From a virus, in IMG/VR virus record IMGVR_UViG_3300032315_000647, positions 50,746 to 114,745 of that record: a stretch of 64,000 bases of DNA. One strand, 5' to 3'. Each line of letters starts with the position of its first letter. Position 1 is the first letter of the stretch. Shown piece by piece: positions 9,801-33,186 of this stretch. Below the pieces are notes generated by a model. It had not been told where the DNA came from and made no database searches. It saw nothing but the letters and a program-made list of their open reading frames with translations. The translations under genes were made by a program, and so were the position numbers.

Positions 9801-12169
9801 GTGGTAGCATCTTTTTCCATTTGTTCATTATAGATGAGCTCACCGATTAAGTCATCTATTCTACCAAATACAGTGGCAAACGCATTGTACTCTCGCATGT
9901 CTGCAGCCATTTCAGAGAGTTTCTCATCTGTAAAGTCTTCACCTTTTGTATTAGCGGGTCTATCCTTATAAATGGTGTTATAGTCATTGAGTATTCGTTG
10001 ACCTTCTTTCTTCATCTCTTTAATTACATCTACAAGAGGAGCAATGTTGAGAGTTCCCTGGGCTGCACGAATTGCTTCCTTTAGAATGTTCAACCTATCA
10101 CGTTTGAATTCACGCTCATCTTCATCTGTCACCACCTTCTTAGAAATCTGTTTGTAAGAAGCATTGAGTAGTGAGATGAGTTTATCAAGACGTTCAAAAC
10201 CAGTGGTTTCTGTTTCTTCAGATACAGGAACCAAACGTAAGTCTTCAATCTCTTCTGTGTTTACAGATCCTATTGAAATTCCTGTAACCTTAACAGGAGA
10301 TTTTTTATCTCTAGGATTTTCTTGTTTAATATCCATCAGAATAGGAATTGCCCTATTCATCCCCATTTCTTTCACTCCATATCTATCACGAAGAATATCT
10401 TTATATCGTCCGAGCTGAACATTATATGCTCCTTGTTTATACCAAGCAACATCTTTAGCACCAGCAGCAACACTCATGAACTTCCAGTCAATGATATTAC
10501 CTTTGCCATTCTCTTCTACAATCAACAAGTCTATTGTACCAGCTTCTTTCTCTTTAGGATCATATATAATCACCTCAGAGAACACAAGAGGATTCTTACC
10601 ATCCTTTGAGAACTTAGCTATTAACTCAGTGTAATACTTCTCAAGTTTGTCATATATCTGTTCATCTACATCTGAAAGTTTTAATGTACGAGGTTCAGGA
10701 TTTACCTTTCTTGTTCCATCAGAATTGAAATATCTTCCATGTATCTCTTCAAAATATCCATGCCCTTTAACACCAAACTCTCTTTTGAACTCATTGAATT
10801 TCTTCTCTTCTTCTGTAAAAGTCTTATCACCAAAACGTTGCCTATACCAAGCTTTTACACGATCAGTTACCCTTTTAGTAACACGTTGAAACGTACCATC
10901 AGGTTGCTTTACCTCATACCAGTTAGATGCTTCTTCAGTGTCTACCAAAAGAGGATCAATAGATTTCTTATCTTCAACCTTCTTAATACTATCTTTTGTC
11001 TGAAGGATGCGTTGTTGTATTTCTTTTTGAGCATTAGAGATTTGATAATAAACTCCTTCTCCAACAAGTTCACCTTCAACACCTTCCTCTATAAGAGCAG
11101 CAGCTTCCTTGAACACATCAATGTTAGCTGCTTTATACATCCCTCTGAACCAATCAAGAATCTTCTGCCACCAGTTGTGTACAATGGTTCTGTTGGTCTC
11201 ATTCATCAGTTCAGGGAATTCTGTAGTGCCCTGATTATTATTAATAATTAGTTCAGCAATCAGTTTATCAACAGCTTCTTTCTTAATCTTACGAATGTCT
11301 GGCTTTCCATTAGGAAGTTGATAAGCAGGATTGTTTTTGTATTGTTCAAATGTTTGTTTGTATATAGAAAATCTATCAATCTTGGATATCATTTCTGTAA
11401 CTAGATTGGGATTCTTCTTCTCAATAATGGCTGTAGCTATGTGCACCATCTCTTCTGTAAGAGCAACATCCTCTTTACCCTCTGCAACAGCAATTATCCT
11501 ACTTGTCAAATCAGCAATAGCATTAACACTATTTTCAACAGCAAGCTTTGTCCCTTTCAAATACTCAGAGAGATCCTTAACATCCACGCCCATTTTCTTC
11601 AAAAGCTCTTTCACTTTTGAAATAGTTTCTGGAGAAGCAATTGAGGAAGGCATTCCTTCCATTTGCATCATTGTCTGAGGAATAACCTCAAAGTAATCTC
11701 CTCTATCAACAGCTAAACCTTTATTTAATAAAGATTTCCAAACCCTATTTGCAGAATTATTTATATCTTGTTTACCAAAAAATTCTGATTTTAAAGTTTT
11801 ACCTTCTTTTGCTAATTTATTTGCAAGAGCTAAATAAACTTTTGTACCAAATCCTTTACCTTGAAATTCTTCATATAATTCTACTCCAGCCATTCCTATA
11901 GAAGAAGATATGTAACCTTCATTATCTACAGAAATAACTCCTGCATATCTACCATTTATTTTAATAGGATAACTTGTTGCTTCTGGATTATCTGGATTAA
12001 ATCTTGGGTTATCTAAAGTTAGATCAGGAGTTGAATCAAATAGTTCTTCCACTCCTTGTTTAATACCTTGCTGTTCCCTATCAACTTCTATCTCAGCCAA
12101 TAAACGATTGCCCCCTGTTCTCTCAAGAGCAGCTTTGAATTCTGGGCTATTTGGATTTATACATGCCAT
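6896..12169 (-). CDS. Large virion cargo protein with GNAT-like and PD-(D/E)XK nuclease-like domains
   Basis: A 1757-residue protein. Residues ~60-150 resemble a GNAT acetyltransferase, with the acetyl-CoA loop-like EFQGKGFGTKVYLAL at ~101-115. At ~235-247 the sequence ALTEEMVHIATAI has the form EExxH, seen in zincin-like domains of large phage 'polyvalent' proteins. Residues ~468-585 look like a RecB-type PD-(D/E)XK nuclease: H470/E474 in a first motif, E532, D547 in GTIDLLIVEE, D561-W-K563 and a following QGAYNVQLGRY (Q...Y motif). Much of the rest is helical and charged, and a hydrophobic segment (ELSILMSMFGAMFALGFAAP) lies near the C-terminus. The start ATG is 1 nt after the stop of the RNA polymerase gene, so the two are coupled. 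It is probably injected with the DNA; nuclease and acetyltransferase activity are inferred from motifs only. Confidence 0.7.
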   Translation of the reverse strand: MACINPNSPEFKAALERTGGNRLLAEIEVDREQQGIKQGVEELFDSTPDLTLDNPRFNPDNPEATSYPIKINGRYAGVISVDNEGYISSSIGMAGVELYEEFQGKGFGTKVYLALANKLAKEGKTLKSEFFGKQDINNSANRVWKSLLNKGLAVDRGDYFEVIPQTMMQMEGMPSSIASPETISKVKELLKKMGVDVKDLSEYLKGTKLAVENSVNAIADLTSRIIAVAEGKEDVALTEEMVHIATAIIEKKNPNLVTEMISKIDRFSIYKQTFEQYKNNPAYQLPNGKPDIRKIKKEAVDKLIAELIINNNQGTTEFPELMNETNRTIVHNWWQKILDWFRGMYKAANIDVFKEAAALIEEGVEGELVGEGVYYQISNAQKEIQQRILQTKDSIKKVEDKKSIDPLLVDTEEASNWYEVKQPDGTFQRVTKRVTDRVKAWYRQRFGDKTFTEEEKKFNEFKREFGVKGHGYFEEIHGRYFNSDGTRKVNPEPRTLKLSDVDEQIYDKLEKYYTELIAKFSKDGKNPLVFSEVIIYDPKEKEAGTIDLLIVEENGKGNIIDWKFMSVAAGAKDVAWYKQGAYNVQLGRYKDILRDRYGVKEMGMNRAIPILMDIKQENPRDKKSPVKVTGISIGSVNTEEIEDLRLVPVSEETETTGFERLDKLISLLNASYKQISKKVVTDEDEREFKRDRLNILKEAIRAAQGTLNIAPLVDVIKEMKKEGQRILNDYNTIYKDRPANTKGEDFTDEKLSEMAADMREYNAFATVFGRIDDLIGELIYNEQMEKDATTEEAKEGVAFNKNLLKDISDEARKIRLSAEQIGEVSGKFADKFIGERNLVKGLLNAEAVVKGLSSNFRGISELPMASLEVLFKLVTNAKGRASRDALGEVDRLMAIRKKLVDRGGDVRKLVQQIYQKDDKNKTVNKLIYKFKKEFFEGVDNNALEGNHDKNWLLNNIDVDAYRKEAKELLDKKIERIKKLYDDDPDRMDEMILEEKRKWDIDRKDFNGWKNYIIKRHPLAKWQSEEYKELLKDNDLFELYNFINEMNNKAKESGYISNKVASTFLPFIRKGMAESLAWDFDVSAVMNFGKSLQIQTDDVGYGKINELTGELENAIPKYYTYDFTRKEDGTNDYSDVSEDIFKNMILYINHMEKYKYLSEVEDQLQLVKTIETFKGYLNTNNVGEVVYDERGPKVMAKGEVTSEGNAKIFNDFLRALLYEQKYPLSDSDTPLGVGKVMNFMKSAVNNVANREVFKIDENPSATSLVKTMDAANRAFQLKALGLEFVSGAVNAFGANIQIATQAGNYFKAREVLANETKLVGNKFKNDEEREMFIQLVNIFMPLKDDPTYDKLQEAGLTVLTRQNFSDMLYFFMKHPEQHIEKSIFLTLLDNTMIDNGKIVNIREFVKRKYKDRYDSSSKYKEVASKINEEIEELKKTKAISVTKKLENGKLVIPGLDLSNIDELQRLTNLTRRISRNATGGLSDSDLNRMGMSVWTKSMMVFKNWIPKLVDTRFGEFRKVSDDFSVEIGEDGITTGQKYDIGRIRLFAYVLGTSIRDRSTNIYNILAVNDKGVELMNKMYEEFAEKYEKRTGKPLEMDRDEFIDMIRINLRNQVKELSILMSMFGAMFALGFAAPDDEDDRASKNFYRYQLRVIDKFISELSFFYNPAEFQKILSGSLFPAIGIFSDMGRFVDHAMMEMTGVDTSDSDLTVEQVRKKAQPIKNFGKMFPFTKSIFTYGGILDPEFAKEFDITIQKESRR

Positions 12170-12170
12170 A

Positions 12171-15100
12171 TCAATAACATTCTTTTAGTTTTTTAATTGC
12201 CATCTGTCCTTCCAAAGTAATACATTCCATTATCTCTCCAAGAGCCTCATCTTCTGTCATTTTGTATTTAGCACTATAGTTTTTGAGGATTTGCTTTTGC
12301 CTCTCAGGAGAGAATGCTTTTTCAAATGTCAAAGGAACTCTAGGAGCTGTAGGAGCTTGTTGTGTGGGAACTGACCTCTTATAACTCTTAGGATCTTGCA
12401 AGAACTTGCTGATGATTACATTATTATCAACATCCTCCACTTGTATAAATCCATTCTCAATTACAGACTTGTGATCAACATCATAGAACTCATTAGCTCT
12501 GAAGCTGTCTCCCCATGCATTTACAGCTTTGTAGACAAAGTATTTCTTACCCTCTTGATCGGAATGTTCTAGAGGTGTACCAGAATTATCATACACTTTC
12601 CTGAACAAACCTTTATTCATAAAAGAGAAGTCTCCAGCTTTACGCATTTTAGCCTTCTTATCCTTTATCACTTTATACAATTCAATACCTCTAGCGTTTG
12701 CTTGTTCTATTTCTTCCTTTGTAAGAAGATCATTTTCCTTCTCCCAGGTGTACACTATGTAATCAAAACTTGCTTCTCTGTTGTTCTTAGAACGTGTAAG
12801 TACAGGAGGAATCTCTCCTTTGGCTACAGCATCTTGTACAGGATTAGGCAAGAACTTCATTGATGGATTGTAATACTTCTTACCTGTTTTCTTTGATGTA
12901 ATCAATGCTGCTTTCAAATAAGGAGTGATATCATCATTGTTCCAGTTGTTCCTTTCAAACACACCAAGCTTATAGAAGTCATCTAAGTTAGACAATCCTT
13001 CCAACTTGGAGAGAGTTGCGTTATAAATTTTCTCAAAGTCTTCATAAGGAATAAGAGATGTGAATGATATTGGAGAACTTGACAAACCGCTTTGAAGAAT
13101 TGCTAAGGTGACAATTCTGTCATACAGAGGATTCTTATCATCTTTCAAACGATCTCTAAGTTCACGGAAGGCATATATCACATTGTTCTGATCATACACC
13201 TTGTTCTCTGCCATGTTCAGCTTAACGTTATTCACCCCACCTTTTGCAGCTCTCATGGAAGGAATACCCTCAATGATTCTTATTATTTCATTATTAGCAA
13301 GAGGATCGTTACTTTCTTTAAGCTGATTTACAAAGTTCACAACTTCCCTACCTACACCACCATCATTGATAAGGATGTCTGTAATTTGTTTATTAAGATT
13401 TTGGTCAGTTTGTACAGCCCAGTCAAACAAGTCAGCTACAGCTTTCTGAGCCACCTTCACAAAATCCCTATCACTCATATTTACATAAGGTTTCAACACC
13501 TTCTGTATTACTCCTCTCACCTTAGGACTATCAGACTTCAGAATTTGAGCAAATGCATCTCTCACTTGATTTATATTCTGAGCAAGCTTTCCAACAAAGG
13601 AATTTGAAAGCAATGTATCTACAGAACTGATGATGGTGTTCTGAGCTTTGATTTGCTGCATTTGCTTCTTGAAAATCAGATAGGGATCATTGAAACTAGC
13701 TGTATCATAGTTAGAGCCTTGAGTTACATGGAACATGTGTTCTGCCATCTTGGCATATTTCAAGAACTCCTTCAGCATCAGGTATTGATCTGTCTTCTCC
13801 TGAGCACTCATGTCAGAAGGAAGCTTGCCCAGATTTTTCTCTAGTGCGGTTTCTGAAGGAATTTTGAATGACTGCAATCTTCTATCCAATTCAGTTTCAG
13901 ACATCTCTTGTTCATATCTATAACCCATCAATTCAACAAAGTCATCAATAAACAACCATGAATAACCAGCACTTTCTATTGTACGAAGGTAGTCACGAAT
14001 AATAGGCTGGTTCATGAAATAAGCTACAGTGTTTACAGGAACACCAAGCTTAACCAAGAACAACCATGTGCTTGCTACATTGGGTGTAGCACCAAGTTCC
14101 ATGATCCAAGGACCTTTGGAAATGTCCACATATCCATCAATGAACATACCAATGATATCAGATATGTATTCACCAGCCTTGTTCTTAATCATGGATAAGG
14201 TGGGAACCATTTTACCGTCCACCTCAATAGTGTTGTACTTCTCAAATTTAATATCTGGATTATCTGTAAGCCAGAATCTATCATCTTCAGAAGCTCTATC
14301 AAGCCTATTCTTATCTATATAAATAGGTTGACGTTGATTGAGAGAGTGATTAGTCTGGTTTACAGCTGCAATACCAATTGCATATTTACCTGTTACAAAT
14401 GCATGACGCAAGCTTGACATGAATGTTCTGTCAAGCATATTCTCAACATTCTTGTAATCAAATGTTTGACCTATAGTTTTCTGAGCAATCTTTGCAGAAA
14501 GCTTCTTAAGAACTTCTGCAGAGTTGGGCTTAATAAGGTTTTCATAGTTCTCATCACTTGTGATGAGATTTTCCATACTCTGGATGTAACCATTCTCCAA
14601 GCTCTTTTTGTACAACTTCTTGACAATCTGATCTTTAGAACGAACATCTTTCATGAATTCTGCTGTAAGTTCTTCTTCAGAAAAGAAGTTTCCAAATATT
14701 GATTTTAAGAATTTACCAGCAGCATCATCCATCTCATCTTCCATGAGAAGAGTTTCTTCAGCAATATACCTATCAAGCTCTCTCATTTGTTCAGGAGATA
14801 GGAATTCTCCTTTGTCAAAGAGTTCCTTAAACTTGTCTATTGCTTGCTGACCAATTCCAAAATAAGGAATCAGTTTAGGCTTACCGTTCTTAATATATAC
14901 GTTCTTGAGATAGATGGAGAGTTTATCTATATCAAAGTCAGATCCTACCTTCTGAACCAAAGCAGCAGGGATGACAACACTATCTTTGAATTCCTTAGGA
15001 AGGAACTTCTTGATAACAATAACATCAACAGAGTTTTGCTTTTGTGTAGGAATACGATAACCTACACCAGACAATACCTTTTGTCCTTCTTCTGTATTAT

Positions 15101-18100
15101 TTAAATAGTTAATAAGTTCTTCATCAGATAGTGGACTATCAAACCACCTACCAAGCATCACCTCAGCTACACGCTTACCGTCCTTCTCATAGAACTTGAG
15201 AACCTCAGACTCATAGAATCCATCTTTCAGCTTACGCACACCACTTTCAAGAAGTGTAGAAGGAATCTGAACCTTCATACCACCATTGATCTTTGGAGAG
15301 ATGAATTGTTTGTCAGCTATGGAGTAGATAACGTTTCTCACTTGCTGATATGCAGGAGTGGCTTCAAGCACCACCTTACCCTGAAGAAATCCAGCAAGAG
15401 CATCTGATGCATTATCATTTATCTCCCTCTTCAGCATTTCATCACGAAGAGTTTGTGCAGCTTTAGAGAAGTCTGTTATCTCATATTTTCTTTCAATAAT
15501 TTTACCATCTTTATCTTTAGTGATGGTTTCCTTAATACCCAGTCTCTCAAGAGTGGTTTTATATCCCTCCTCAATAAGAGCTTCAAGAAGGTCTTGATTC
15601 TCTTTTATATTTCTATAAAGCTTAGACCTCTCAAGTTTCTCACCGTCACTAAGTTTATACCAAGCTTTGTATCTGTTGTTAAATGGTTGACCAGGAAAGA
15701 AATCAACAGGTACACCAGCTTCCATGAAATCAAGAGTGATGAGCTTTGTAATCTGACTACCTCTTGTAACATCAGATGTATCCTTAGAAGGAACTTCAGC
15801 CTGAATACTCATGATGGAGAAAGGAACGTTTGTAATGTTCTTTTCTGAATAAGGAGTATTGTTGAACTGCCCATCTATGTAGGTTTCGTGAGGATCTTGA
15901 GCTCCCACCTTTCTACTACTAGCAAACACTATGTAATCAATATCCTCTTTCTGCATCTTTTCATAAAGCTTGATGGCATTAGCATCACTATTGATTTGCT
16001 TCATGATGCGATAGGACAAAGGATAAAGAGCGAACTTATCCAACATTACATTATTGTACGAGCTAGCTGTACCATTTTTAGCAAGCTTGCTACCAGATAC
16101 AATAGGCTTAATTGGAGTGTATGCACTTTGAATGCCAGGATTACCAGCAGCCAACAAAACCCTTTCCTCTGGACTCATGTCCAAACCCTTATCATTCTTT
16201 TCCCAAGCTACATCATATCTGTATTGACGCTCCTCATCACTATTCCAATCACTAGCTCTAATCCTGAAATGACGGTTTGCTCTCATGTTGATTATACCAG
16301 CACCATCAGTTTCTTTAAATTTTTCGTAGTTATGAAGATCAATTATTCCTATTACATCTGCATGTGTTGCTGTACGGAAATAGTCTCTTGTGAACTTTGT
16401 AAAACCAATGTCTCCACTACTGAAACCTTTATTCCAAATGTTATTAAAGGCTGTGTTCATCTTTGGAGAACTATTGATGATAGCCTGACGAGGAGAGTTG
16501 AAGTTTTTAATACGCTTGAGTTCATCCTCATATTGATAGGGATCAGAATACAGAAGCTTATGCATCTCAATATTTGCAATCATGTAGTTTGCAGTGAGAG
16601 CCATGAGTTCTACATTCAGCTCCTTTTCTGTCATGTTCTTAGGAAGCTCTGTATTCTCTATACTAAAACCTTCTTCTGTTTCTTTAAGAATACCATATCG
16701 TGAAAGTACAATTTTGAGTTTGTTCATGTCTGTAGTCATGAAGTCCTCAATCTTTCTGTTTATCTCCTTCTCAAAGTCTTTATAAACTTGTTCAGGTGTT
16801 CCAGTGGCACTCACCACTTTATTATGAAGATCTCCAAGAATACCCTTGAAGAAACGCATTTCTTTAGATTTTCTACCTTTAGCAACAGGACGATCTTCTC
16901 TTACAAGTTCCAACTCAGACAGGAAATACCCTTTAAATATCTCATTGATATCTCCCATTCCTTTTCTTACAGAAGCTGCAGAAATTGCATTCCCAAGTTT
17001 TATCATCCATTCAAGAGATGCATCTCCAGGAACCAGATTCAAATACCAACCTTTGACATTGAGATTGAGCTCTTGTACAAGCCTTTGTCTGTATGTGAGA
17101 CGAGAGGATTCTTTACGCTTTCCTTTTGCCTCATCCACTGTACCACCAACATATCCAATCTCAAAGAGGTCTTCTGAACCTTCTTTTATCTTACCGTTGC
17201 TAGCAAACATCCTGCTAAGAATATTAGAGTTCTTAGCAAATGAGTCTGTCAGAAGGTAGCTATATTGTGTACCCCCTACAGATTCCTTATTGAACACTTT
17301 AACCTTAGAAAGGAATGTTCTTAAATCACTAGCAGCATTTGTACCAATATAAGACTGTGTACGTTCACCAGACACACTGAAATATGTGCTGCTGAATTCA
17401 GGGTTACTAATAGCTGCTCTTACTAAAGCAAGTTCAAGAAGACGACCTCTCATTCCAAGAGCCTTACCAGAGAAGGTTGCTATCTTTTCAGTTTTAGCAA
17501 TGCTTGCTTTAATACCAAGAGTGGCTTCCTTGAACTTTTTATATTGGTCAGAGGTCATTTTGTTTACATCCTCTACACTAAACGGAATACCAAGTTCCTT
17601 CAGAAAGCTAGTTAACCCTGCAGGAGTAGCTAAGTTAGTCACCTTTGCAAGCTTGCTAGGATCCCCCACAAATGCTTTTTCTTTTTCATTATATGTGAAG
17701 AATCCCTTACCCTCTTTTGCTTTGAACACAATAGAGTTGATGTATTCATTTCTAATCTGTTCTCCAGCAGAAGCAAGATTTGCCTCACCAACAACCACTT
17801 CTCCATTCTCAAGGATGAATACATTCTTAACACTAGGATTCTGTTTTTTGAATGTATTCCACAAAGAACTTATAAGTTGCAGTCCATGTTGTGTTTTGAT
17901 TTGCCCTAAATCAACACCCTTCTCCTCCCAAGATCTTTTTGTAATCCTCTTATACAGAGTTCTATAGTTTACATCATTCTCAGCCATCTTGCGAAGGTTC
18001 TCCAACATCTCTTCTATACTAGCAGAGTTGTGAAGATTATTCATCAAGCTGATGTATGTCTTTCCTACAGGAAGAAGAAGTGCTCCACCAATAGAAGAAG

Positions 18101-21100
18101 GGATAATCTTACCTTGTGCATTCACTTGTGGAATAGTGGACAACAGAAGCTTTATTGCAGAGCTTGCTTTCTTGAAATTGTCAATCTTTGAAGCGTCTTG
18201 ATAATCACTTTTGCCACTGTTATGTTCATCTCTCACCATCAGATTTTCGTCCTCATCAAATTCAATCTGATAGCTCTTTAAATATTCTTGATGTCTTTCA
18301 ACAATTGTTTCCCATTGATCCTTAACATGTTGCATCAATTGAAGAACATTGGATATATAAGGATTGACTTCTTCTTGTGTATTTTTATTCTCTCTAACAA
18401 GAGCTTGTGCTTTACGAGCTTTTTTAGCAATTGTTCTATATATTTGATATCTGAGATTGTCGTAAATTTCTTTTTTATTACGTTTTTCAACTTCAAACAA
18501 ACTCTCATCTGTCTTAATCATGTCAGTGAGAGTGAGATAGGTCATGTGTTGAATGATGTCATTCCTCTCTCTATCATTGATTCCTGCAAGACTAAGTACA
18601 GCATCTGAGTCAGCAAATGCATCCTCTACATCAATGATGCCTTGTTTGGCATAAGCAAGACTGTTTACAAGAGGTAGATTGGATTTGTAATATCCTTTAC
18701 CAATCTTGCTGAACATCTTCTCAACCTTGGAATCTGAATCACGACCAAGGAAGAACTCTTTAATAGTTGTCAACATGTCAGCAAACAACTTAAGAATATA
18801 AGGTCTTCCCTTTGCAGGTTTTTGAGGAATCTTCTTAAACTGAATGTAATCTCTAAACTCTTCAGCCAATCTTTCTTCAAGTTGTTCTTCTGTAGCTTTA
18901 GAATAGCTCACATCCTTCAGAGATGCTCTATCAAAGAACTTGCCGCTCCTAGCCCTCATCTCATCCATTACAGACTTCTGTTCTGTAGGATCAGAGAACA
19001 TCCTCCATACAGCATGGAACACTTCATGATAGACAGTGCCCACTTCAGCATTTTCATAGATGTATATTGCACCATCCTTGAACATACCCCAGGCTTGTTT
19101 ACCATTGGTAGCTTGAATGATGTTCTTTACACGATAGATAGGAACATTAGGGAAATTGGCTTTCAGCCAAGTTTCCACTTGATTCCAGTTTTCAGGAACA
19201 AATGCTTTGAGTTCTTGTTCAACAATTACACGAAGAGCTTCATCACTCTCTCCAATTATTTTTTCATTTACAGCATCTATTATAGACTGACTGATAGGTT
19301 TACCAACTTTAGCACTAGCATCAGCTACGGTTGCTTCTGGAACAGCTTCTGGAATGGTGATAACAAGTTCTTCCTCTGTTGCTCTTATTTGATCAAGTGT
19401 AGGAGCAATAGCATTGAATATTGTCTTCTTAAGTATTTCTCCAGGATCCTTACCAGCAGCTTTTATTTTAGCAACCACTTCATCAAGATCACCACCCTTC
19501 AAGATTTTAATCTTGTCAATTAAATTTGCAGGTGTTGTATCAGAAGGTGCAACAAATATTATTTGCTTTCCTTCTGGAGAAACATATATGTTTTTTGATT
19601 CTCCATCAAGAACATATCCACTAGTAGGAACAGCTACAGCTTCAGGAACTCCAACAGTGACAGTTTCAAAAGGAGGTTCTTCTGTAGAAGCAGGGGTTGA
19701 GGGAATAACTGAGGGAGCTTCTACTTTAGGAGCAGCTGTAGGTGTTGCAGGAGCACCAGGGGTGATTCTCTTAATGGTAGCCACCTTCTTCTTCTCAACA
19801 ACAGGAATTACAAAATCATCAGCTGTATCTGTTGTATAGAAATAGATGTCTGTTCTGTTTATGTCTTCCTCATTAGCAACAGGACGCATGGTGGTTGCGA
19901 GAGGGAGCTCTTCACCACTTCTCTTCTTTCCATCAGGAGTGGTGTTTGAAAGCAGATAGGATTGATAGTTCTTCCATGTTCTACTAATCACCTCACCTTT
20001 AGGAGATATGGACAATATCTCTTCGTAAGATTCGTTCAGTTGTTTTGTATAATGAGACTTAATGTTGTTGTACATGTTGGACAACAGAAGCATAATCTCA
20101 TTCTTGTTTTCTTCAAGTGATGTAGGTGTGAAAGGAAAATCCTTACCTCTACCAGAAATAGAGAGCATAAACTTACCTGTCTCAGGATCTTTCTCAAAGA
20201 ATATGCTATTATATCCTGCAGGCTTTCTTTCCTTATTCTGATCTACTGGAATACCCCAATAGACAACAGATTTCAACCAGTTGAGCAAACGCTCAGACTC
20301 AGGACTCTTGATTCCCACCTGAGGATTGAGCATGTTCTTAGCCAGCTGATGAATAACCTGATAGATGGTTTCAGCTTCTTTCTGTGTATGTTTTCTGTTC
20401 TGAAGCTTAACAAGTCCATTAGGCAACTCAAGAACTACACTACCAATAGGTGTTCTGAGTGTTGTTGTACCTTGTTCAAGAACAGCAAGATTGCTTCCTT
20501 CAGAAGGAAGTGTGGGGATGTTAATCAGTTGGCTAGATTCTAGATCAGCAGTTGAGATGAGATTTGCATCTTCTACAGATGTTCTAGTTTCGTAGATGAT
20601 TTTACCATCAGCATCTGTAACATTCTGAACTCTTCCAAAGGATGCACCAATCGCATGGCGATCACGCAAACTAGGATTTTCAAGAACAGATGTTCTCCAT
20701 GCCTTGTATTGAGCAGTTACAGAATCTACCACTTCTTTAGGAGTGTCCTTACGGAACATACTTGCATTATCATACTCAGCACCCCATTTCAATTCAGCAT
20801 CAGGGAACACTTGATATATTGCAGTGTCCAAAGGATTTGCACCTTCAGCAATAGGTTGTCCATCTTCTCCAACAAGAGATATGTTACCATCAGCATCTTC
20901 CTCCACCATTACCAGCGCAATGATTTCATCTTTCTTAATGTCCTCATTTATCTGACCAGCCTCATCCATTCTCAGACGATCTGTTAAGCCAGGGATAATT
21001 TCATCTTCGTTTTTAGATGTTACATATACACCACGAATGTTTTCTCTGTTTGGAAATCTCTCAAGATTGAATCCAAAAGTGTTAGCTCGTACTTGATGAG

Positions 21101-24100
21101 GTTTACCTCTCATCACTCCCGCTGTAGCTCTAGGAAGTATAATGGTAGATTTCTTAGCTGTAGGTTCATATTCCTTACTGAATGGTTCAGTTTGAACATC
21201 GTTATCAGCAGTGCCTAATGCTTCAGCAAGAAGTTGTTGATTCTTGAATAGTCTTTCTTCTTCAGCTTTTCTAAGTTGATAAGCATCTGCCACAGATTGA
21301 AATCTATCAAGAATCTGCTTCTTAGCATTATACTCATTTCCTAATTCATTCAACCTGCCATAAAGATCAGCTATCTCTTTATTTGCATCCTCAAGTTGTT
21401 TCTCACTAACAGCTACGTCTTTCTGTACATCCTGTAGAAGAGCATAATCAGCAAGATATTCTTTCAGAGTCTTAACTTCTGAGAACACTGGGTTATCCTT
21501 CATCCTCTCCATGCTATCCTTTATGTAGGAAGGATAGTCAGCATCAAATTTCTGCAAAGCAGATTGCAGCATAGAGATGAACTCCTTGATGGCAGATTCA
21601 ATATCACCAACCATCTTTGACAATGTATTAATATTGTCACCTGTTTCTTTGACAAGTAAGTCAATCCACTTAACTTGCTCTTTTAGTTCTTTAAGAAACT
21701 CTCCAGAGTTTTCAGGAAGCTCATCAAGGTTTTGTGCAAAGTCTTCAAAATAAGAGAGATTAAACTCAAGCTCATTTTTCTCAGCAGTGAGTTTAGCAAT
21801 CTCATCTTCAGTGTCTTCCTTCATACGAGAAAGCTTAGTAAGAGCTTTACTAGTAGTGGATAGAATTTTACTAAACCTAATATTTTGACGACTGAGTTCA
21901 GGATACTTAGCTTCAATAGCTTTTTCTCTTTTTGTACGAGCTTCAGTTGCTTTTACCTCACCTATCTTTCCTAAGTCATCTTGAATGCTTTGAAGATCTT
22001 TCTTCTTATTTTCAAGCTTACGATTCACTTCCTCAAGACGAGATCTGGTTTCCTCTTCAAGCTCTACAATAATTTCAAGACGATTACCTCTATTTCTTGC
22101 AAGTGTATCTTCAGTTTTCTGACGAGCAATCTCTTCAGGAGATGTAAATTCCTGTCTAGCTTCTGCTTGTTCAGAATTTTCAATTGTCCCTACAACTTTT
22201 ATACGAGCCTCTTTAAATCCTTCCTGTACTTGGAAGTATTCATTCTTAAGAGCTTTTCTTTTGATTTGTCCTTTATCATTTTTATAAACAAAGAAAAGTT
22301 TACCATTATCATATTCTATTCTTCCTTGTTTCTTTCCTCCAAAATTTTTTCCAAAGTTGTATTCAAATATTTCGTTCTTGTGTCTACGGAAATAGTTAAC
22401 GGTTTTATTACTACGAACTTCATCAGCCCTAGCAATTTTATAATCAAAAAGAACATCTTTAGATATGTCTCTTATCTCTCCTTTGTTATCCTTAATCTTG
22501 ATTGTACCATCTGCATTCTCACCAAGTATAGTGAGAGCACTTATAGTGATAGGCACCTCAAGTCCATCTTTATCATAATCAAATGCCTTTCCTACAAAAT
22601 ACTCAACTCCTGTAGCAAGTAAACGATCTTTTTTATCACCTTTAATTGTAATGAGTTTTGCACCTTCAGGAGCTTTTTCTACATCTTCTTGTTCTTCAGC
22701 TTTTTCATCTTCTGGTGTACGCTCATACTCCTTGAATTTCTCAGGAGTCTTTTTTATTTCGTTATATTCTTTCAGGAACTTATCCCTACGAATACTCATT
22801 TCAGCCACATCCTCAAGAGATTGAGCAATGTCATCTTTCTCAACGTCAGAGATGGTCTTCATGTTTGCAATGCTATCAATAGCAGCATTGAAACTATCCA
22901 CCTTACCTTCAATAATATCCTGGACAACACTATCAATGTTAATACCTGCAGCAGCAAGTTTAGGAGTGAGTTTAGGGATACGAACATCATAATCAGCCAC
23001 TTTAGAAGCAGCATACACCATCTGATCAATTACAGATGAAGGATATACACGTTTTCCTTGTTCATCTATTTGACCAGCATATCGTAAGTTGAGAGACTGA
23101 TATAGAGATTTTACATTATCTGCAGTTTGTTGCAGCGATATAACACGCTGCAGAAATGCCTCTCTTGTATCTGTAGGAAGAGCTTTTCCCTCAGCTACAA
23201 GTTGAGCAAATCCTTCATCTGTACTAGCCAGAGCTCTATAGTCATTGATATCAGCTTGCACCAAATCAAACCTACCATACTTAATACGAGGAGAGAGATA
23301 GTTAATTACATAATCTGCCTCCTTATCCTTACTATTCAATACATCACCTTTCTTCAGAAGTTCTTCTCTTTCTTGTTGAAGAACAGTTCCACGGTTGACA
23401 GAATCAATTGTATCTTTAGTAAAGTCTGAAAGTCTATATTTATTGAACTTCTGAACAGCATCAACTGTATTCTTGCTTTGTTCTACATCCTCTTTATACT
23501 TTCCTCTGCCTTGCATAATTGCACCAGACAAGCCACCAATAATAACACTCTCAATACCTTCATCAGTTCCAAAGGTTTGTTGTAACCCTTCTGAAAGACT
23601 GCTGAGAAAGCTTGTAGGTTCATTATTGTTCTTCTTATTGAAATAGTCTTTAACACTTACACCAATTGCATACTGAGCACCTTCTTCAAATGCTTCAGAT
23701 GTAGAAAATGTATAAGGTCTGATTTTGTTAAGAGTTCCTAAAATCTTACCACCAACAGAAGGTTTTGCAATATATTTTCCACCCTCTTCAACAATATTTT
23801 TTGTTTCTGATATAAGAGAATTAATCATTCCCTTTTCAGCAGTGAATGAAGAACCTAATATTTTAGGAAATTGAATATAGTTGGTTGCTGTAAGCAATCC
23901 AACATTAGCCCAGAAAGATGAATCACCTACTTGTTCAGCTTTTCTATTAATAGCGTCCATATCCTCACCTTGAGGATATACACCATTGTTCTCAGCCCTA
24001 TATTCTTCAATTAATCTATCCCTTTCTTCATTTAGATTCTGCAAAGCTTCAAACCCAGCTTCACCTGTTGTAGCTAGTCCAGAAACAACAGCTCTTCCTC

Positions 24101-24941
24101 CAGGGTTTAATACTTTATAAGAGCTGAGGAATTTATCAGAAAGAGATTTAATTTTACCATACGTATCAGCCACCTTATTAGCAGAAGCAAGTCCTGCTTC
24201 TGTAGCAGCTAACACTTCAGCTTGTTTTCCAATTGATACAAGACGAGATATACCAGGAAGTGCACTAAGTCCTTTGATACCAGCAGCATATACACCTCCT
24301 GACAATGCTGCACCAGCAGCGTAGCCAAGATTTTTTACAATACCATTCCAAAGGAAGTTTGCTGTAAAAAGATTATCAGGAGAATACCAAGCTGCATCTT
24401 TCTCAACATTAGTGTAATAGTTAGGAAGAAGATTATTATCAAGTTCTTTATTAAGATTATCTAGTGCCCTGTTCATTTCATTATCGTAGAAAGAAGAGGG
24501 GTTACCAGTGGCTATCCAATTACCAACACCATTAACAAGTCCCACCGTACCTTGTAAAAAGGTGGTACCTGTAAGAACAATTCCTTTCCCAACACCATTG
24601 ACCATTTTCTCAGCCCAAGTCTGACCTTGAGCATATGCATCTTCATTGTTATAATCACCAGGTACAAATGAATTATATCTAGGATTAGACATTTCACTAA
24701 GAGGACGCATGATAGATCCGCCTCTCATTTGACCTGTGGAGGATTTTCTAACAGAAGCATCAAGTGCCTGAAGAGCAGATACTGATTCAGTTCCTCTACC
24801 AGGACCTTCAGGTGTAGGATTATTAAGACCTCTAAAGTCAACATTAGGAAGTGGCTCTGGAGCACCACTAGGTTTATATCCACCAAATTGTTGTTCTAAA
24901 CCTGATCTATCAAGTAACGGTCCTTGTGGATTCTCTGCCAT
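12171..24941 (-). CDS. Giant virion RNA polymerase fused to zincin-like protease
   Basis: A 4256-residue protein. D3335-F-D-I-D3339 in the context QKVGSDFDIDKLSIYLKN, preceded by GYRIPTQKQNSVDVIVIKKFLP, matches the catalytic metal-binding loop of crAss-like phage RNA polymerases (phi14:2 gp66 type), relatives of the two-double-psi-barrel enzymes such as QDE-1. H1972-E-V-F-H1976 in TVYHEVFHAVWRMF, followed by EERLAEEFRDY, is a zincin metallopeptidase signature. Glycine-rich hydrophobic stretches occur at ~116-145 and ~201-230, and long coiled coils lie around residues 970-1330. The start overlaps the stop of the upstream 865-residue gene by 1 nt. In the known family the enzyme is packed in the capsid, injected and transcribes early genes. 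At this length it may combine what are two or three genes in other crAss-like phages. Confidence 0.85.
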   Translation of the reverse strand: MAENPQGPLLDRSGLEQQFGGYKPSGAPEPLPNVDFRGLNNPTPEGPGRGTESVSALQALDASVRKSSTGQMRGGSIMRPLSEMSNPRYNSFVPGDYNNEDAYAQGQTWAEKMVNGVGKGIVLTGTTFLQGTVGLVNGVGNWIATGNPSSFYDNEMNRALDNLNKELDNNLLPNYYTNVEKDAAWYSPDNLFTANFLWNGIVKNLGYAAGAALSGGVYAAGIKGLSALPGISRLVSIGKQAEVLAATEAGLASANKVADTYGKIKSLSDKFLSSYKVLNPGGRAVVSGLATTGEAGFEALQNLNEERDRLIEEYRAENNGVYPQGEDMDAINRKAEQVGDSSFWANVGLLTATNYIQFPKILGSSFTAEKGMINSLISETKNIVEEGGKYIAKPSVGGKILGTLNKIRPYTFSTSEAFEEGAQYAIGVSVKDYFNKKNNNEPTSFLSSLSEGLQQTFGTDEGIESVIIGGLSGAIMQGRGKYKEDVEQSKNTVDAVQKFNKYRLSDFTKDTIDSVNRGTVLQQEREELLKKGDVLNSKDKEADYVINYLSPRIKYGRFDLVQADINDYRALASTDEGFAQLVAEGKALPTDTREAFLQRVISLQQTADNVKSLYQSLNLRYAGQIDEQGKRVYPSSVIDQMVYAASKVADYDVRIPKLTPKLAAAGINIDSVVQDIIEGKVDSFNAAIDSIANMKTISDVEKDDIAQSLEDVAEMSIRRDKFLKEYNEIKKTPEKFKEYERTPEDEKAEEQEDVEKAPEGAKLITIKGDKKDRLLATGVEYFVGKAFDYDKDGLEVPITISALTILGENADGTIKIKDNKGEIRDISKDVLFDYKIARADEVRSNKTVNYFRRHKNEIFEYNFGKNFGGKKQGRIEYDNGKLFFVYKNDKGQIKRKALKNEYFQVQEGFKEARIKVVGTIENSEQAEARQEFTSPEEIARQKTEDTLARNRGNRLEIIVELEEETRSRLEEVNRKLENKKKDLQSIQDDLGKIGEVKATEARTKREKAIEAKYPELSRQNIRFSKILSTTSKALTKLSRMKEDTEDEIAKLTAEKNELEFNLSYFEDFAQNLDELPENSGEFLKELKEQVKWIDLLVKETGDNINTLSKMVGDIESAIKEFISMLQSALQKFDADYPSYIKDSMERMKDNPVFSEVKTLKEYLADYALLQDVQKDVAVSEKQLEDANKEIADLYGRLNELGNEYNAKKQILDRFQSVADAYQLRKAEEERLFKNQQLLAEALGTADNDVQTEPFSKEYEPTAKKSTIILPRATAGVMRGKPHQVRANTFGFNLERFPNRENIRGVYVTSKNEDEIIPGLTDRLRMDEAGQINEDIKKDEIIALVMVEEDADGNISLVGEDGQPIAEGANPLDTAIYQVFPDAELKWGAEYDNASMFRKDTPKEVVDSVTAQYKAWRTSVLENPSLRDRHAIGASFGRVQNVTDADGKIIYETRTSVEDANLISTADLESSQLINIPTLPSEGSNLAVLEQGTTTLRTPIGSVVLELPNGLVKLQNRKHTQKEAETIYQVIHQLAKNMLNPQVGIKSPESERLLNWLKSVVYWGIPVDQNKERKPAGYNSIFFEKDPETGKFMLSISGRGKDFPFTPTSLEENKNEIMLLLSNMYNNIKSHYTKQLNESYEEILSISPKGEVISRTWKNYQSYLLSNTTPDGKKRSGEELPLATTMRPVANEEDINRTDIYFYTTDTADDFVIPVVEKKKVATIKRITPGAPATPTAAPKVEAPSVIPSTPASTEEPPFETVTVGVPEAVAVPTSGYVLDGESKNIYVSPEGKQIIFVAPSDTTPANLIDKIKILKGGDLDEVVAKIKAAGKDPGEILKKTIFNAIAPTLDQIRATEEELVITIPEAVPEATVADASAKVGKPISQSIIDAVNEKIIGESDEALRVIVEQELKAFVPENWNQVETWLKANFPNVPIYRVKNIIQATNGKQAWGMFKDGAIYIYENAEVGTVYHEVFHAVWRMFSDPTEQKSVMDEMRARSGKFFDRASLKDVSYSKATEEQLEERLAEEFRDYIQFKKIPQKPAKGRPYILKLFADMLTTIKEFFLGRDSDSKVEKMFSKIGKGYYKSNLPLVNSLAYAKQGIIDVEDAFADSDAVLSLAGINDRERNDIIQHMTYLTLTDMIKTDESLFEVEKRNKKEIYDNLRYQIYRTIAKKARKAQALVRENKNTQEEVNPYISNVLQLMQHVKDQWETIVERHQEYLKSYQIEFDEDENLMVRDEHNSGKSDYQDASKIDNFKKASSAIKLLLSTIPQVNAQGKIIPSSIGGALLLPVGKTYISLMNNLHNSASIEEMLENLRKMAENDVNYRTLYKRITKRSWEEKGVDLGQIKTQHGLQLISSLWNTFKKQNPSVKNVFILENGEVVVGEANLASAGEQIRNEYINSIVFKAKEGKGFFTYNEKEKAFVGDPSKLAKVTNLATPAGLTSFLKELGIPFSVEDVNKMTSDQYKKFKEATLGIKASIAKTEKIATFSGKALGMRGRLLELALVRAAISNPEFSSTYFSVSGERTQSYIGTNAASDLRTFLSKVKVFNKESVGGTQYSYLLTDSFAKNSNILSRMFASNGKIKEGSEDLFEIGYVGGTVDEAKGKRKESSRLTYRQRLVQELNLNVKGWYLNLVPGDASLEWMIKLGNAISAASVRKGMGDINEIFKGYFLSELELVREDRPVAKGRKSKEMRFFKGILGDLHNKVVSATGTPEQVYKDFEKEINRKIEDFMTTDMNKLKIVLSRYGILKETEEGFSIENTELPKNMTEKELNVELMALTANYMIANIEMHKLLYSDPYQYEDELKRIKNFNSPRQAIINSSPKMNTAFNNIWNKGFSSGDIGFTKFTRDYFRTATHADVIGIIDLHNYEKFKETDGAGIINMRANRHFRIRASDWNSDEERQYRYDVAWEKNDKGLDMSPEERVLLAAGNPGIQSAYTPIKPIVSGSKLAKNGTASSYNNVMLDKFALYPLSYRIMKQINSDANAIKLYEKMQKEDIDYIVFASSRKVGAQDPHETYIDGQFNNTPYSEKNITNVPFSIMSIQAEVPSKDTSDVTRGSQITKLITLDFMEAGVPVDFFPGQPFNNRYKAWYKLSDGEKLERSKLYRNIKENQDLLEALIEEGYKTTLERLGIKETITKDKDGKIIERKYEITDFSKAAQTLRDEMLKREINDNASDALAGFLQGKVVLEATPAYQQVRNVIYSIADKQFISPKINGGMKVQIPSTLLESGVRKLKDGFYESEVLKFYEKDGKRVAEVMLGRWFDSPLSDEELINYLNNTEEGQKVLSGVGYRIPTQKQNSVDVIVIKKFLPKEFKDSVVIPAALVQKVGSDFDIDKLSIYLKNVYIKNGKPKLIPYFGIGQQAIDKFKELFDKGEFLSPEQMRELDRYIAEETLLMEDEMDDAAGKFLKSIFGNFFSEEELTAEFMKDVRSKDQIVKKLYKKSLENGYIQSMENLITSDENYENLIKPNSAEVLKKLSAKIAQKTIGQTFDYKNVENMLDRTFMSSLRHAFVTGKYAIGIAAVNQTNHSLNQRQPIYIDKNRLDRASEDDRFWLTDNPDIKFEKYNTIEVDGKMVPTLSMIKNKAGEYISDIIGMFIDGYVDISKGPWIMELGATPNVASTWLFLVKLGVPVNTVAYFMNQPIIRDYLRTIESAGYSWLFIDDFVELMGYRYEQEMSETELDRRLQSFKIPSETALEKNLGKLPSDMSAQEKTDQYLMLKEFLKYAKMAEHMFHVTQGSNYDTASFNDPYLIFKKQMQQIKAQNTIISSVDTLLSNSFVGKLAQNINQVRDAFAQILKSDSPKVRGVIQKVLKPYVNMSDRDFVKVAQKAVADLFDWAVQTDQNLNKQITDILINDGGVGREVVNFVNQLKESNDPLANNEIIRIIEGIPSMRAAKGGVNNVKLNMAENKVYDQNNVIYAFRELRDRLKDDKNPLYDRIVTLAILQSGLSSSPISFTSLIPYEDFEKIYNATLSKLEGLSNLDDFYKLGVFERNNWNNDDITPYLKAALITSKKTGKKYYNPSMKFLPNPVQDAVAKGEIPPVLTRSKNNREASFDYIVYTWEKENDLLTKEEIEQANARGIELYKVIKDKKAKMRKAGDFSFMNKGLFRKVYDNSGTPLEHSDQEGKKYFVYKAVNAWGDSFRANEFYDVDHKSVIENGFIQVEDVDNNVIISKFLQDPKSYKRSVPTQQAPTAPRVPLTFEKAFSPERQKQILKNYSAKYKMTEDEALGEIMECITLEGQMAIKKLKECY

Positions 24942-27538
24942 TATAACGGTTTTTTAGAAGCCTTTTCCAATAGTTGCAAATCGTTTCTAGTAGCTTGTCT
25001 ACCATCATTCAGTAATTCATGAATAGCCGCATCTGTAAGTTGCGACATGATAGGAACTACTTCTTCCTCACTAAGCATTCTAGGATAGCCAATATCATTA
25101 TGGTAGGTTTTTGTAATAGGATCGTACATGTTAAGTCTTAATGAGTATGTCCTCCCACCGTCATTACTAATCACTGCACCAGTAACTCCATAACTTCTTA
25201 TATTAGGAAAGTCAATTGCTTTAAGATTTGAATTCTGATATGTTATATCCCCTTTTGTAGGATTAGTTGATAGAAAAGAACTATTAGGATCACTAAACTT
25301 TTGCATCATCCTTTGATAAGGTCTGAATGCTCTCACTGCTGGAGAAGGTTCAAATCTATCACCAAACATAGCATACTTCTGTTCAGGAGTCATATTGAAA
25401 GTGGTAGTACCAGCTTTACCTCTGGCTGTAATTTGATATATAGGAGGACTAAATTCTGTACCTTCTATTATTGTTACACTGCCTTCAGCGTCCCCACCCT
25501 CTGAAATTCCTCTTAATATGTCTTTGTTTAGTGATGGAGATTCAGCAATTGCTCCTTTTTGAGAATCAGCAAGGTCTGCTACTTTACCAAATAAGGATGA
25601 TAAACTCTCTTTCTGTGCTTTTGTAGTTGTAGGAATATTATAAGAAACACCTTGTGCGCTCAACACTCTTCTTTTAACTTCCTCTTCTATAAACTCGTTT
25701 TTCTTCTTAAGAACATCATTGTATTTGACATTCACATTTTTTGAATAATAGTTCAAGTTATCTGTTAACACTTTATCTGCCTGAGTAAATCCTTTTCCAA
25801 GAAATCTTGCTTTTTCTGCTTCATAAAGCCTATACTCTTTTTGAGAAAGTTCATTTTTTGCTCTATTGTCATCAAACGTAACATTAGCTCTACCTCCAGC
25901 TTCTGCCGAACTTACAATTTTGTAATTATTAATTTTTGAATTAAAGTCAACTAGATCTTTTGGAGTGTAGGTGAATCTGTTTCCTTTGTTATCAGTATAG
26001 TTAAGATTGGGAGCATTTTTAGGAATACCGCTATACACATCGCCATACACTCTATCAGCTTCTGAACTAATTTTACCAATCATCACTTTATTCTCTTCAG
26101 CAACTCTTCTTAATCGTTCTGTATTATCAAAATGCTGTTTTACTACAGGATCCACTCCATTTGGAGATCTTAAATAAGCTTCTCTTTGTTGATTCAACCA
26201 AGCTTGATCTTTTCCTTTACTAGCTGCAAAATCAGCATCTGATTTTGCAATAGCTGATGAATAATTCTCTGTTTGGTTTACTACAGTACCTAAAACAACT
26301 TTTGGGAGAGTGTTAGGATCAACAGGACCAGGAAGACCACCGTAACCTTCAAGTTCAGTTCTTTTCAAACGGTTCTCTTCTTTTTTCTCAAAAAGTTCTT
26401 GTTCTCTAAGAGAAAGATTCTTTTTAGACAAATCATAATCAAGAAGAAATTTCTTCCAATCCTGTTCCTTCTTTTCTCTTTCTAATGCAATTTGTGCAAG
26501 AGGGTTATTTTCATATGTCTGAGAAGTTTCTGTGAACGAGAATGCATTAGAAAATCCATTCATGAAATCAGAAGTGAACAATCTTGCTTTTGCAGAATCT
26601 ATATCTCCACTAGCAAATGTTTTTGAAATATTACCATATTCAGTGGAGATGTTATTTAAGATTTTATCAAGATCTTTTATCTTCCTATCCAGCTGTGCCT
26701 TTTCTACAGCAGATGATGTAGAGCTTTTAGCATTCTCAAGAACATTACGTTGTTGAGCAAATGAATCGTATTTGTTTTTATAGGAAGAGTTAACAGATTT
26801 TACAAATTGTTCACCGTCAAGATTTGCATAACTATACCTACCATCAATTTCCATCTGTTTCCAGTCAGAAGGAGTGAGTCCTGCAAGAAGAGCTTGTTGA
26901 ATTTTCTCAGGAGAAATACCTGCCATCTTCTCTCTTAGAATAGCATCTTGAATTACCAAATTACCTTTACTATCTATTCTGAAGGCATCATCTCTAATAC
27001 TTGAATCTTTTGTAAGACTCTTTATTACCTCAAGTGCATTCTTTTTGTAATTAGTGTAAGGGTTATAAGTTCCGTTAAATGTGTCATCTAAACTTTTGCT
27101 GTTCAGCCATTTACTAGCTCTATCTTTAAAATCCCAATCATTTGAAGGAGACCCTTTACCTTCTTTATTGAAGGTTGCCATATCATTCAAACCCTTTCTA
27201 TAGGCTTGTGTAGAAGACAAAGCATTTACAACATTACGATCTTTGACAATCTGATTTGTCATACCTGCTACAGAGTTAACCAACTGAAAGTTGGAAAAGT
27301 CACCAGCTGCTACTGTTTTGAGATTGTTCCCAAGTTCATTCAACTTAGATTGCAAATATGCTTTATCTATATCACGAACTACGTCTAGTCCAGCAATATT
27401 ATCTATCTGAGATTGAATCTTCTGAACGCCTTCATCATAGCGCTTTTGCTTTTCCATACCAACTTTCACCATAGCTTCCACAGGAAGCTGCTGGATGTAT
27501 GGATTAAATTGCGGTATAAGATCTGTAAATGAAGCCAT
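24941..27538 (-). CDS. Conserved crAss-like cargo/virion protein
   Basis: An 865-residue, mostly helical and charged protein. The N-terminus (FTDLIPQFNPYIQQLPVEAM, then VGMEKQKRYDEGVQKIQSQI) is a strongly conserved opening that I associate with large virion proteins in Bacteroidetes phages next to the RNA polymerase gene. The centre (~360-400) is a charged coiled coil (EREKKEQDWKKFLLDYDLSKKNL). There is no catalytic motif I can name. It has its own promoter (27554-27584) and its stop overlaps the start of the RNA polymerase gene, so translation of the two is coupled. A role as an internal protein ejected with the polymerase, or as a structural partner of it, is inferred from position. Confidence 0.65.
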   Translation of the reverse strand: MASFTDLIPQFNPYIQQLPVEAMVKVGMEKQKRYDEGVQKIQSQIDNIAGLDVVRDIDKAYLQSKLNELGNNLKTVAAGDFSNFQLVNSVAGMTNQIVKDRNVVNALSSTQAYRKGLNDMATFNKEGKGSPSNDWDFKDRASKWLNSKSLDDTFNGTYNPYTNYKKNALEVIKSLTKDSSIRDDAFRIDSKGNLVIQDAILREKMAGISPEKIQQALLAGLTPSDWKQMEIDGRYSYANLDGEQFVKSVNSSYKNKYDSFAQQRNVLENAKSSTSSAVEKAQLDRKIKDLDKILNNISTEYGNISKTFASGDIDSAKARLFTSDFMNGFSNAFSFTETSQTYENNPLAQIALEREKKEQDWKKFLLDYDLSKKNLSLREQELFEKKEENRLKRTELEGYGGLPGPVDPNTLPKVVLGTVVNQTENYSSAIAKSDADFAASKGKDQAWLNQQREAYLRSPNGVDPVVKQHFDNTERLRRVAEENKVMIGKISSEADRVYGDVYSGIPKNAPNLNYTDNKGNRFTYTPKDLVDFNSKINNYKIVSSAEAGGRANVTFDDNRAKNELSQKEYRLYEAEKARFLGKGFTQADKVLTDNLNYYSKNVNVKYNDVLKKKNEFIEEEVKRRVLSAQGVSYNIPTTTKAQKESLSSLFGKVADLADSQKGAIAESPSLNKDILRGISEGGDAEGSVTIIEGTEFSPPIYQITARGKAGTTTFNMTPEQKYAMFGDRFEPSPAVRAFRPYQRMMQKFSDPNSSFLSTNPTKGDITYQNSNLKAIDFPNIRSYGVTGAVISNDGGRTYSLRLNMYDPITKTYHNDIGYPRMLSEEEVVPIMSQLTDAAIHELLNDGRQATRNDLQLLEKASKKPL

Positions 27539-27553
27539 TTTATATCAAGTTAG

Positions 27554-27584
27554 CAAATGTATTATTAACGATTATATTTTCCAA
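27554..27584 (-). promoter_or_regulatory. Bacteroidetes-type promoter of the cargo/RNA polymerase genes
   Basis: Minus strand: TTG (27584-27582), 20 nt, TACATTTG (27561-27554), matching TTG-N19-20-TAnnTTTG. The -7 box ends 15 nt before the ATG at 27538, so the leader would be under 10 nt. It would drive the 865-residue gene, the RNA polymerase gene and the 1757-residue gene. Confidence 0.6.
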
Positions 27585-27610
27585 GAGAAATAACAATTTT
27601 TGGTAAACGG

Positions 27611-27631
27611 CTATAACTGAATTAGTTATAG
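27611..27631 (-). terminator. Hairpin at the end of the 921-residue gene
   Basis: Perfect 8-bp stem (CTATAACT at 27611-27618 with AGTTATAG at 27624-27631, 5-nt loop) overlapping the stop codon of the upstream gene and lying before the next promoter. No clear U-run follows on the minus strand, so it may be a weak terminator or an RNA-stability element. Confidence 0.4.
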
Positions 27632-30391: not shown

Positions 30392-30392
30392 G

Positions 30393-33175: not shown

Positions 33176-33186
33176 CTTATTCTATT

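What the first reader, a model, noticed from the sequence alone, without database searches (positions are those of the whole stretch)
12171..24941. 4256-residue virion RNA polymerase fused to a zincin protease
One gene carries both a DFDID polymerase loop (residues 3335-3339, in a context typical of crAss-like enzymes) and an HEVFH zincin site (1972-1976), with hydrophobic segments near the N-terminus and long coiled coils. In the crAss-like phages I know of, the polymerase region is spread over two or three genes and is shorter. A single chain of this size suggests a polyprotein that is packed in the capsid, injected and possibly cut by its own protease into a polymerase and translocation parts.
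Basis: partly seen in the sequence, partly recalled or inferred. Interest (0 to 1): 0.85.

Follow-up and report, generated by a model that had tools for sequence, protein, structure and literature searches.

The report
Giant phage polymerase with protease-like domain
A crAss-like phage makes one 4,256-residue protein that joins a probably injected, protease-like helper to the phage's RNA polymerase; such giant fusions already exist in named phages, but across relatives the protease site flips between two chemical forms (HExxH and HExxE), which was not expected.

Summary
One minus-strand ORF (12171-24941) encodes 4,256 aa with HEVFH at 1972-1976 and DFDID at 3335-3339. The polymerase part is homologous to phi14:2 gp66 (PDB 6VR4, E=3.6e-24); DFDID is invariant in 85/85 full-length relatives. 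HEVFH lies in a conserved zincin-like domain (predicted topology fits; Foldseek finds no solved zincin).

A single giant chain is not new: named Crassvirales (cr1_1, cr50_1, cr118_1, cr53_1, cr273_1) carry the same order in one 4,551-5,794-aa frame, and zincin-vRNAP fusions are published for N4 and P23-45. Self-cleavage that frees the polymerase is unproven and unlikely to be the zincin's only job: crAss001 and cr128_1 keep zincin and polymerase on separate chains, and phi14:2 gp67 shows no zincin match.

New here: in 110 zincin domains the second metal His is His (36) or Glu (74), never anything else, with a charge swap at 2022 and 1980, while YHE-F, E2023 and E2027 are invariant. The Glu form is no less conserved. 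Zincin and polymerase trees conflict, so modules recombine inside the gene. A switchable metal site is the testable novelty; the fusion is an ordinary member of a known kind.

The parts
12171..24941 (-). fused vRNAP-zincin gene, 4,256 aa
   Evidence: 85 complete homologous ORFs of 2,969-5,063 aa carry both domains
22647..24659 (-). N-terminal all-helical module, residues 95-765; homologous to crAss001 gp47 and phi14:2 gp67 N-termini
   Evidence: E=3e-64 and 8e-13; AlphaFold2 pLDDT 80, all helices
21162..22364 (-). coiled-coil-like stretch, residues 860-1260, about 100-430 aa in relatives
19266..19844 (-). variable Pro/Ala-rich linker before the zincin, residues 1700-1892, 108-731 aa in relatives, no conserved island after residue 1705
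18597..19265 (-). zincin-like domain, residues 1893-2115
19014..19028 (-). HEVFH motif, residues 1972-1976 (HExxE in most relatives)
18861..18875 (-). invariant E2023 (likely third metal ligand) and E2027
   Evidence: both 110/110
12873..17084 (-). two-barrel-type RNA polymerase region, about residues 2620-4023
14925..14939 (-). DFDID catalytic loop, residues 3335-3339
   Evidence: 85/85
24941..27538 (-). upstream 865-aa gene; its TAA overlaps the ATG (TAATG)
6896..12169 (-). downstream 1,757-aa gene; homologous to the 1,716-aa gene after the polymerase in cr108_1
30393..32309 (-). 638-aa protein with lytic/endolysin domain as in internal virion (ejection) proteins
   Evidence: phrog_669 2.7e-23, phrog_342 2.5e-13

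Best explanation
This is a single-chain Crassvirales virion RNA polymerase. One late gene encodes a helical N-terminal cargo/ejection module (about 95-765), a variable coiled-coil and linker region, a zincin-like metallopeptidase-fold domain (1893-2115) and a phi14:2 gp66-type polymerase (about 2620-4023). Shown by sequence: one uninterrupted frame, conserved across the clade; polymerase homology; conserved zincin site; cargo-gene neighbourhood. Inferred from relatives: the chain is packaged in the capsid, leaves through the tail N-terminus first and transcribes early genes. The zincin most likely serves assembly or ejection (packaging, local trimming within the N-terminal cargo part, or a structural role) rather than existing to free the polymerase; this step is inference. 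In the wider clade its metal site occurs in two forms, HExxH and HExxE.
For: Profile of residues 2850-3760 gives one significant PDB match, 6VR4 (phi14:2 vRNAP), E=3.6e-24, aligned through DFDID. tblastn of the polymerase part finds crAss-like phages. DFDID 85/85. N-terminal module matches crAss001 gp47 (3e-64) and phi14:2 gp67 (8e-13); gp47, gp49 and gp50 are in crAss001 virions by mass spectrometry (PMC10172136). All 85 complete ORFs with both domains keep them in one frame; separate chains were seen only in reference phages of other groups. Zincin: H1972, E1973, E2023 and E2027 110/110; predicted helix-strands-helix(HEVFH)-hairpin-helix(E2023) matches the zincin core described in PMC5512222; structure neighbours are crAss-like giant proteins. 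crAss001 and cr128_1 retain the zincin apart from the polymerase.
Against: No protein-level data for this phage. Foldseek finds no solved zincin and Pfam/NCBIfam give no significant peptidase match, so the zincin assignment rests on motif, topology and relatives. The polymerase fold was not predicted here, only inferred by homology. Packaging and injection are extrapolated from crAss001 and phi14:2.
Confidence: 0.75

Rival explanations
1. Self-processing polyprotein: the zincin cuts its own chain, in the capsid or after injection, separating polymerase from translocation parts.
For: Zincin-like domain with intact HExxH...E in the window. Autoprocessing is the proposed role of such domains in polyvalent proteins and likely in phage P1 DdrB (PMC5512222). 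Human CLCA1, a HExxE zincin, self-cleaves (PMC6851300), so the HExxE relatives need not be inactive. A long variable linker precedes the domain.
Against: Zincin kept where the polymerase is already a separate gene (crAss001, cr128_1) and undetected in phi14:2 gp67. N4 vRNAP is packaged unprocessed (PMC5512222). No conserved island in linker 1705-1893. No split genes in the clade.
Confidence: 0.22
2. The zincin is a delivered effector protease that acts on host proteins after injection, carried on the polymerase chain for delivery.
For: Proposed as one role of polyvalent metallopeptidase domains (PMC5512222); tolerates being on a different chain from the polymerase.
Against: No substrate evidence. 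Invariance of the site fits an internal role better than an arms-race effector.
Confidence: 0.15
3. The HExxE form is a catalytically dead, structural zincin, held together by salt bridges to K/R2022 and K1980; the domain's main role is then structural.
For: Glu1976 always comes with a basic residue at 2022 (74/74) and usually K1980. No replacement His/Cys covaries and no other HExxH arises in the chain or, bar one case, in the next gene.
Against: H1972, general base E1973, E2023 and E2027 stay invariant in the Glu form; no relaxation; HExxE zincins such as CLCA1 are active (PMC6851300).
Confidence: 0.35
4. ORF fusion is an assembly or annotation artefact.
For: None found.
Against: The same single frame recurs in 85 complete ORFs from independent contigs and in five named genomes.
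Confidence: 0.01

Closest known systems
Suoliviridae giant transcription genes (cr1_1 4,551 aa; cr50_1 4,774; cr118_1 4,946; cr53_1 4,645; cr273_1 5,794)
   Same: One reading frame with HEAFH/HEAWH zincin-like domain upstream of a DFD[IV]D polymerase; cargo-gene neighbourhood
   Different: About 22-25% identity in matched segments; N-terminal module barely or not detectable; cr53_1 and cr273_1 read through 36-40 TAG codons; all keep HExxH
phi14:2 gp66 virion RNA polymerase (PDB 6VR4) with gp67
   Same: Polymerase homology through DFDID; gp67 N-terminus homologous to residues 52-484
   Different: Two genes; no zincin match or HExxH in gp66/gp67
crAss001 gp47 + gp50 (cr128_1 likewise)
   Same: gp47 carries the N-terminal module and a HEAFH zincin; gp50 the DFDVD polymerase
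   Different: Separate genes on opposite strands
cr108_1 (Pipoluvirus)
   Same: Zincin and polymerase in one coding unit, interrupted by a group I intron at the DxDxD codons
   Different: Shorter (about 3,770 aa if spliced); intron
P23-45 gp96, tape-measure-fused virion RNA polymerase (PMC10770324)
   Same: Two-barrel vRNAP plus metallopeptidase and membrane parts in one 5,002-aa virion protein
   Different: Tape measure of a long-tailed Thermus phage; polymerase at the N-terminus, clamp-less; no homology tested here
N4-like virion RNA polymerases / polyvalent proteins with zincin MPTase (PMC5512222)
   Same: Injected RNA polymerase fused to a zincin-like domain; helical N-terminal injection region
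   Different: T7-type polymerase fold; zincin C-terminal; packaged unprocessed in N4

Membership tests
crAss-like two-barrel virion RNA polymerase (gp66 type) | DxDxD metal-binding loop in homologous context | tested here: met
crAss-like two-barrel virion RNA polymerase (gp66 type) | sequence homology to the solved gp66 catalytic region | tested here: met
   E=3.6e-24 over gp66 1056-1671
crAss-like two-barrel virion RNA polymerase (gp66 type) | two double-psi barrels, bridge helix, trigger loop in the fold | not tested
   structure jobs spent on zincin and N-terminus; inferred only through homology
crAss-like two-barrel virion RNA polymerase (gp66 type) | packaged in virions and transcribes early genes | not testable with these tools
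   shown for relatives only (PMC10172136, PMC10136315)
Crassvirales | portal, tail and cargo gene block related to other crAss-like phages | tested here: met
   (IHF-like, tail tube, virion structural genes; portal phrog_6547 2.2e-99)
zincin-like metallopeptidase (MPTase) domain | HExxH motif | tested here: met
   met in the window; not a fixed feature of the family: HExxE in 74 of 110
zincin-like metallopeptidase (MPTase) domain | downstream glutamate ligand on a second helix | tested here: met
   E2023 110/110, on predicted helix 126-143 of the model
zincin-like metallopeptidase (MPTase) domain | core fold matching solved zincins | tested here: inconclusive
   predicted topology fits; no PDB match in Foldseek; BFVD neighbours are crAss-like giant proteins
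self-processing polyprotein | cleaved products | not testable with these tools
   needs virion proteomics
self-processing polyprotein | fusion and canonical protease site always kept together | tested here: not met
   fusion kept with HExxE in most relatives; zincin kept without fusion in crAss001/cr128_1

The most novel reading that the evidence does not exclude
In the environmental crAss-like clade around this phage, the virion polymerase's zincin exists in two discrete, equally constrained forms: HExxH with mostly E2022/R1980, and HExxE with K or R at 2022 and mostly K1980. Lineages move between them by concerted replacement or by recombining the zincin module. This would be a natural metal-ligand swap (2-His-1-Glu to 1-His-2-Glu) in a packaged protease that remains functional, perhaps with a different metal or trigger.
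Probability: 0.35. Interest if true: 0.6.

Novelty: new member of a known kind. Interest (0 to 1): 0.4.

Why it matters
It shows that a one-chain polymerase-zincin protein is a widespread design in crAss-like phages, recurring with an unrelated polymerase in N4 and with a related one in P23-45, which points to a shared need during ejection. The natural HExxH/HExxE series is a ready-made set of variants for asking whether the zincin must be catalytic, an open question for injected phage proteins in general.

Tried and rejected
DNA-level search of phage records for the gene: no match. Pfam, PHROGs and PDB searches with the whole chain: nothing significant. Zincin profile against PDB sequences: only chance matches. 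Foldseek of zincin and N-terminal models against PDB: no match. Compensation test (a new HExxH elsewhere in HExxE lineages): negative except one neighbour gene in L010. Simple repeated H/E switching as the only explanation: not secure, because the zincin and polymerase trees conflict (p-AU 3e-42) and the zincin alignment does not reject a single Glu clade (p-AU 0.15), although the polymerase tree does (2e-67). Relaxed selection in the HExxE form: not seen. Search of bacterial/archaeal genome contigs for the polymerase to find a host: none confirmed. Artefactual fusion: rejected. A mapping slip gave two odd codons (A, L) at position 1976; the alignment-based tally is used instead. Some key papers (Yutin 2018, Drobysheva 2021) are not held, so an earlier description of the zincin there cannot be excluded.

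Full report
WHAT IS THERE. The ORF at 12171-24941 is open on the minus strand and encodes 4,256 residues. From composition one expects 0.013 HExxH and 0.003 DFDID. The start codon overlaps the stop of the upstream 865-aa gene (TAATG). The window is part of a 114,745-base IMG/VR virus record. Neighbours are a virion block: portal, tail-tube-like and IHF-like proteins, a 2,112-aa virion structural protein, a 638-aa protein with a lytic domain of the kind found in internal virion proteins, and a 1,757-aa gene related to the gene that follows the polymerase in cr108_1.

THE POLYMERASE. tblastn of residues 2800-3900 finds crAss-like phages, including phi14:2 gp66. A profile of nine relatives finds one significant chain in the whole PDB, 6VR4 (phi14:2 vRNAP), E=3.6e-24, aligned over gp66 1056-1671 including DFDID. 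DFDID is invariant in 85 of 85 full-length sequences aligned. The double-psi barrels were not modelled here; they are inferred from homology.

THE ZINCIN. Across 110 domains Y1971, H1972, E1973, F1975, E2023 and E2027 never vary. An AlphaFold2 model of 1893-2115 with 62 sequences has a mean pLDDT of 72, about 75-92 from the strands through the second active-site helix, with the order helix, four strands, helix bearing HEVFH, hairpin, helix bearing E2023. This is the order described for zincin-like domains of polyvalent proteins (PMC5512222). Foldseek finds no PDB match; its best BFVD matches are crAss-like giant proteins. No Pfam or NCBIfam peptidase model matches significantly. I call it zincin-like with moderate confidence.

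THE FUSION IS COMMON. Profile scans of IMG/VR gave 99 distinct ORFs with both domains, 85 of them complete, 2,969-5,063 aa; no complete ORF of the clade has them apart (the 2,969-aa one is cr108_1). Named phages carry the same order in one frame: cr1_1 4,551 aa, cr50_1 4,774, cr118_1 4,946, and, reading TAG as sense, cr53_1 4,645 and cr273_1 5,794. cr108_1 has it interrupted by a group I intron placed at the DxDxD codons. In crAss001 and cr128_1 the zincin is on gp47-type chains and the polymerase on a separate gene on the opposite strand; in phi14:2 gp67 has the N-terminal module without a zincin match. The review PMC10136315 mentions polymerase genes up to about 6000 aa, PMC10770324 mentions fusions of crAss-like vRNAPs to large proteins, and the jaberico record notes 'ZnMc_tr' on its polymerase-associated gene. 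N4 vRNAPs are almost always fused to a zincin (PMC5512222), and P23-45 gp96 combines a two-barrel vRNAP with a metallopeptidase domain (PMC10770324).

A SWITCHING METAL SITE. The second histidine of HExxH is His in 36 and Glu in 74 of 110 domains, never another residue. In the set found by the polymerase scan alone, which cannot be biased by the motif, it is His in 16 and Glu in 51 of 67. All seven reference crassvirus domains recognised by the profile, plus cr53_1, have His, so His is probably ancestral. Glu1976 comes with K or R at 2022 in 74/74 and with K1980 in 64/74, whereas His1976 mostly has E2022 and R1980. On the polymerase tree there are 11 changes, 8 on well-supported branches, and no independent pair goes against the covariation. 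Caution: the zincin tree conflicts with the polymerase tree (p-AU 3e-42) and does not by itself reject one Glu clade (p-AU 0.15). Module exchange inside the gene can therefore explain part or all of the scatter. Module exchange is also suggested by L007, about 47-72% identical to the window in residues 1-1000 but mostly above 80% after 1200. The Glu form is not less conserved than the His form at equal polymerase divergence, and no replacement HExxH appears. HExxE zincins can be active: human CLCA1 self-cleaves (PMC6851300).

HOW IT MOST LIKELY WORKS. Made late with the other virion genes, packed as cargo, ejected through the tail with its helical N-terminal module leading, and used to transcribe early genes. 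Packaging, ejection and early transcription are inferred from crAss001 and phi14:2 (PMC10172136, PMC10136315). The role of the zincin is open. Retention of the zincin on a chain without the polymerase argues that freeing the polymerase is not its main purpose; an assembly or ejection role fits better. Self-cleavage remains possible (about 0.22).

VERDICT. Observation confirmed; fusion ordinary for the order; self-cleaving polyprotein unproven. The HExxH/HExxE duality with charge covariation is the part worth following.

Noticed in passing
window 1377-6782 (-): 1,801-aa gene made largely of collagen-like GxxGxx repeats (GTSGTSGSSG...), GC 45-47% against about 37% around it, probably a tail or head fibre; a 1,035-aa shadow ORF runs on the other strand.
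   Followed up: partly
L004 (cr108_1) 23375-23693: Group I intron (Rfam RF00028, E=1e-20) inserted at the codons of the polymerase DxDxD catalytic loop, so the annotated genes gp054/gp053 are probably exons of one fused protein.
   Followed up: yes
L182 (cr53_1) 14771-28708 and L186 (cr273_1) 21515-38899: Giant polymerase frames contain 40 and 36 in-frame TAG codons, i.e. TAG is read as an amino acid.
   Followed up: partly
L007/L015 against the window, protein residues 1-1000: Mosaic gene: mostly 47-72% identity in the first 1000 residues, mostly above 80% after residue 1200, suggesting recombination within the ORF.
   Followed up: partly
L005 (phi14:2 gp65 residue 247), L002 (cr1_1 gp077 residue 519), L010 next gene residue 208: A second, different HExxH (HEIMH, HELVH, HELLH) sits in the gene after the polymerase in some phages but not in the window.
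   Followed up: no
L011 and L018, after DFDID: Insertions of about 150-200 residues between the DFDID loop and the next conserved block of the polymerase.
   Followed up: no
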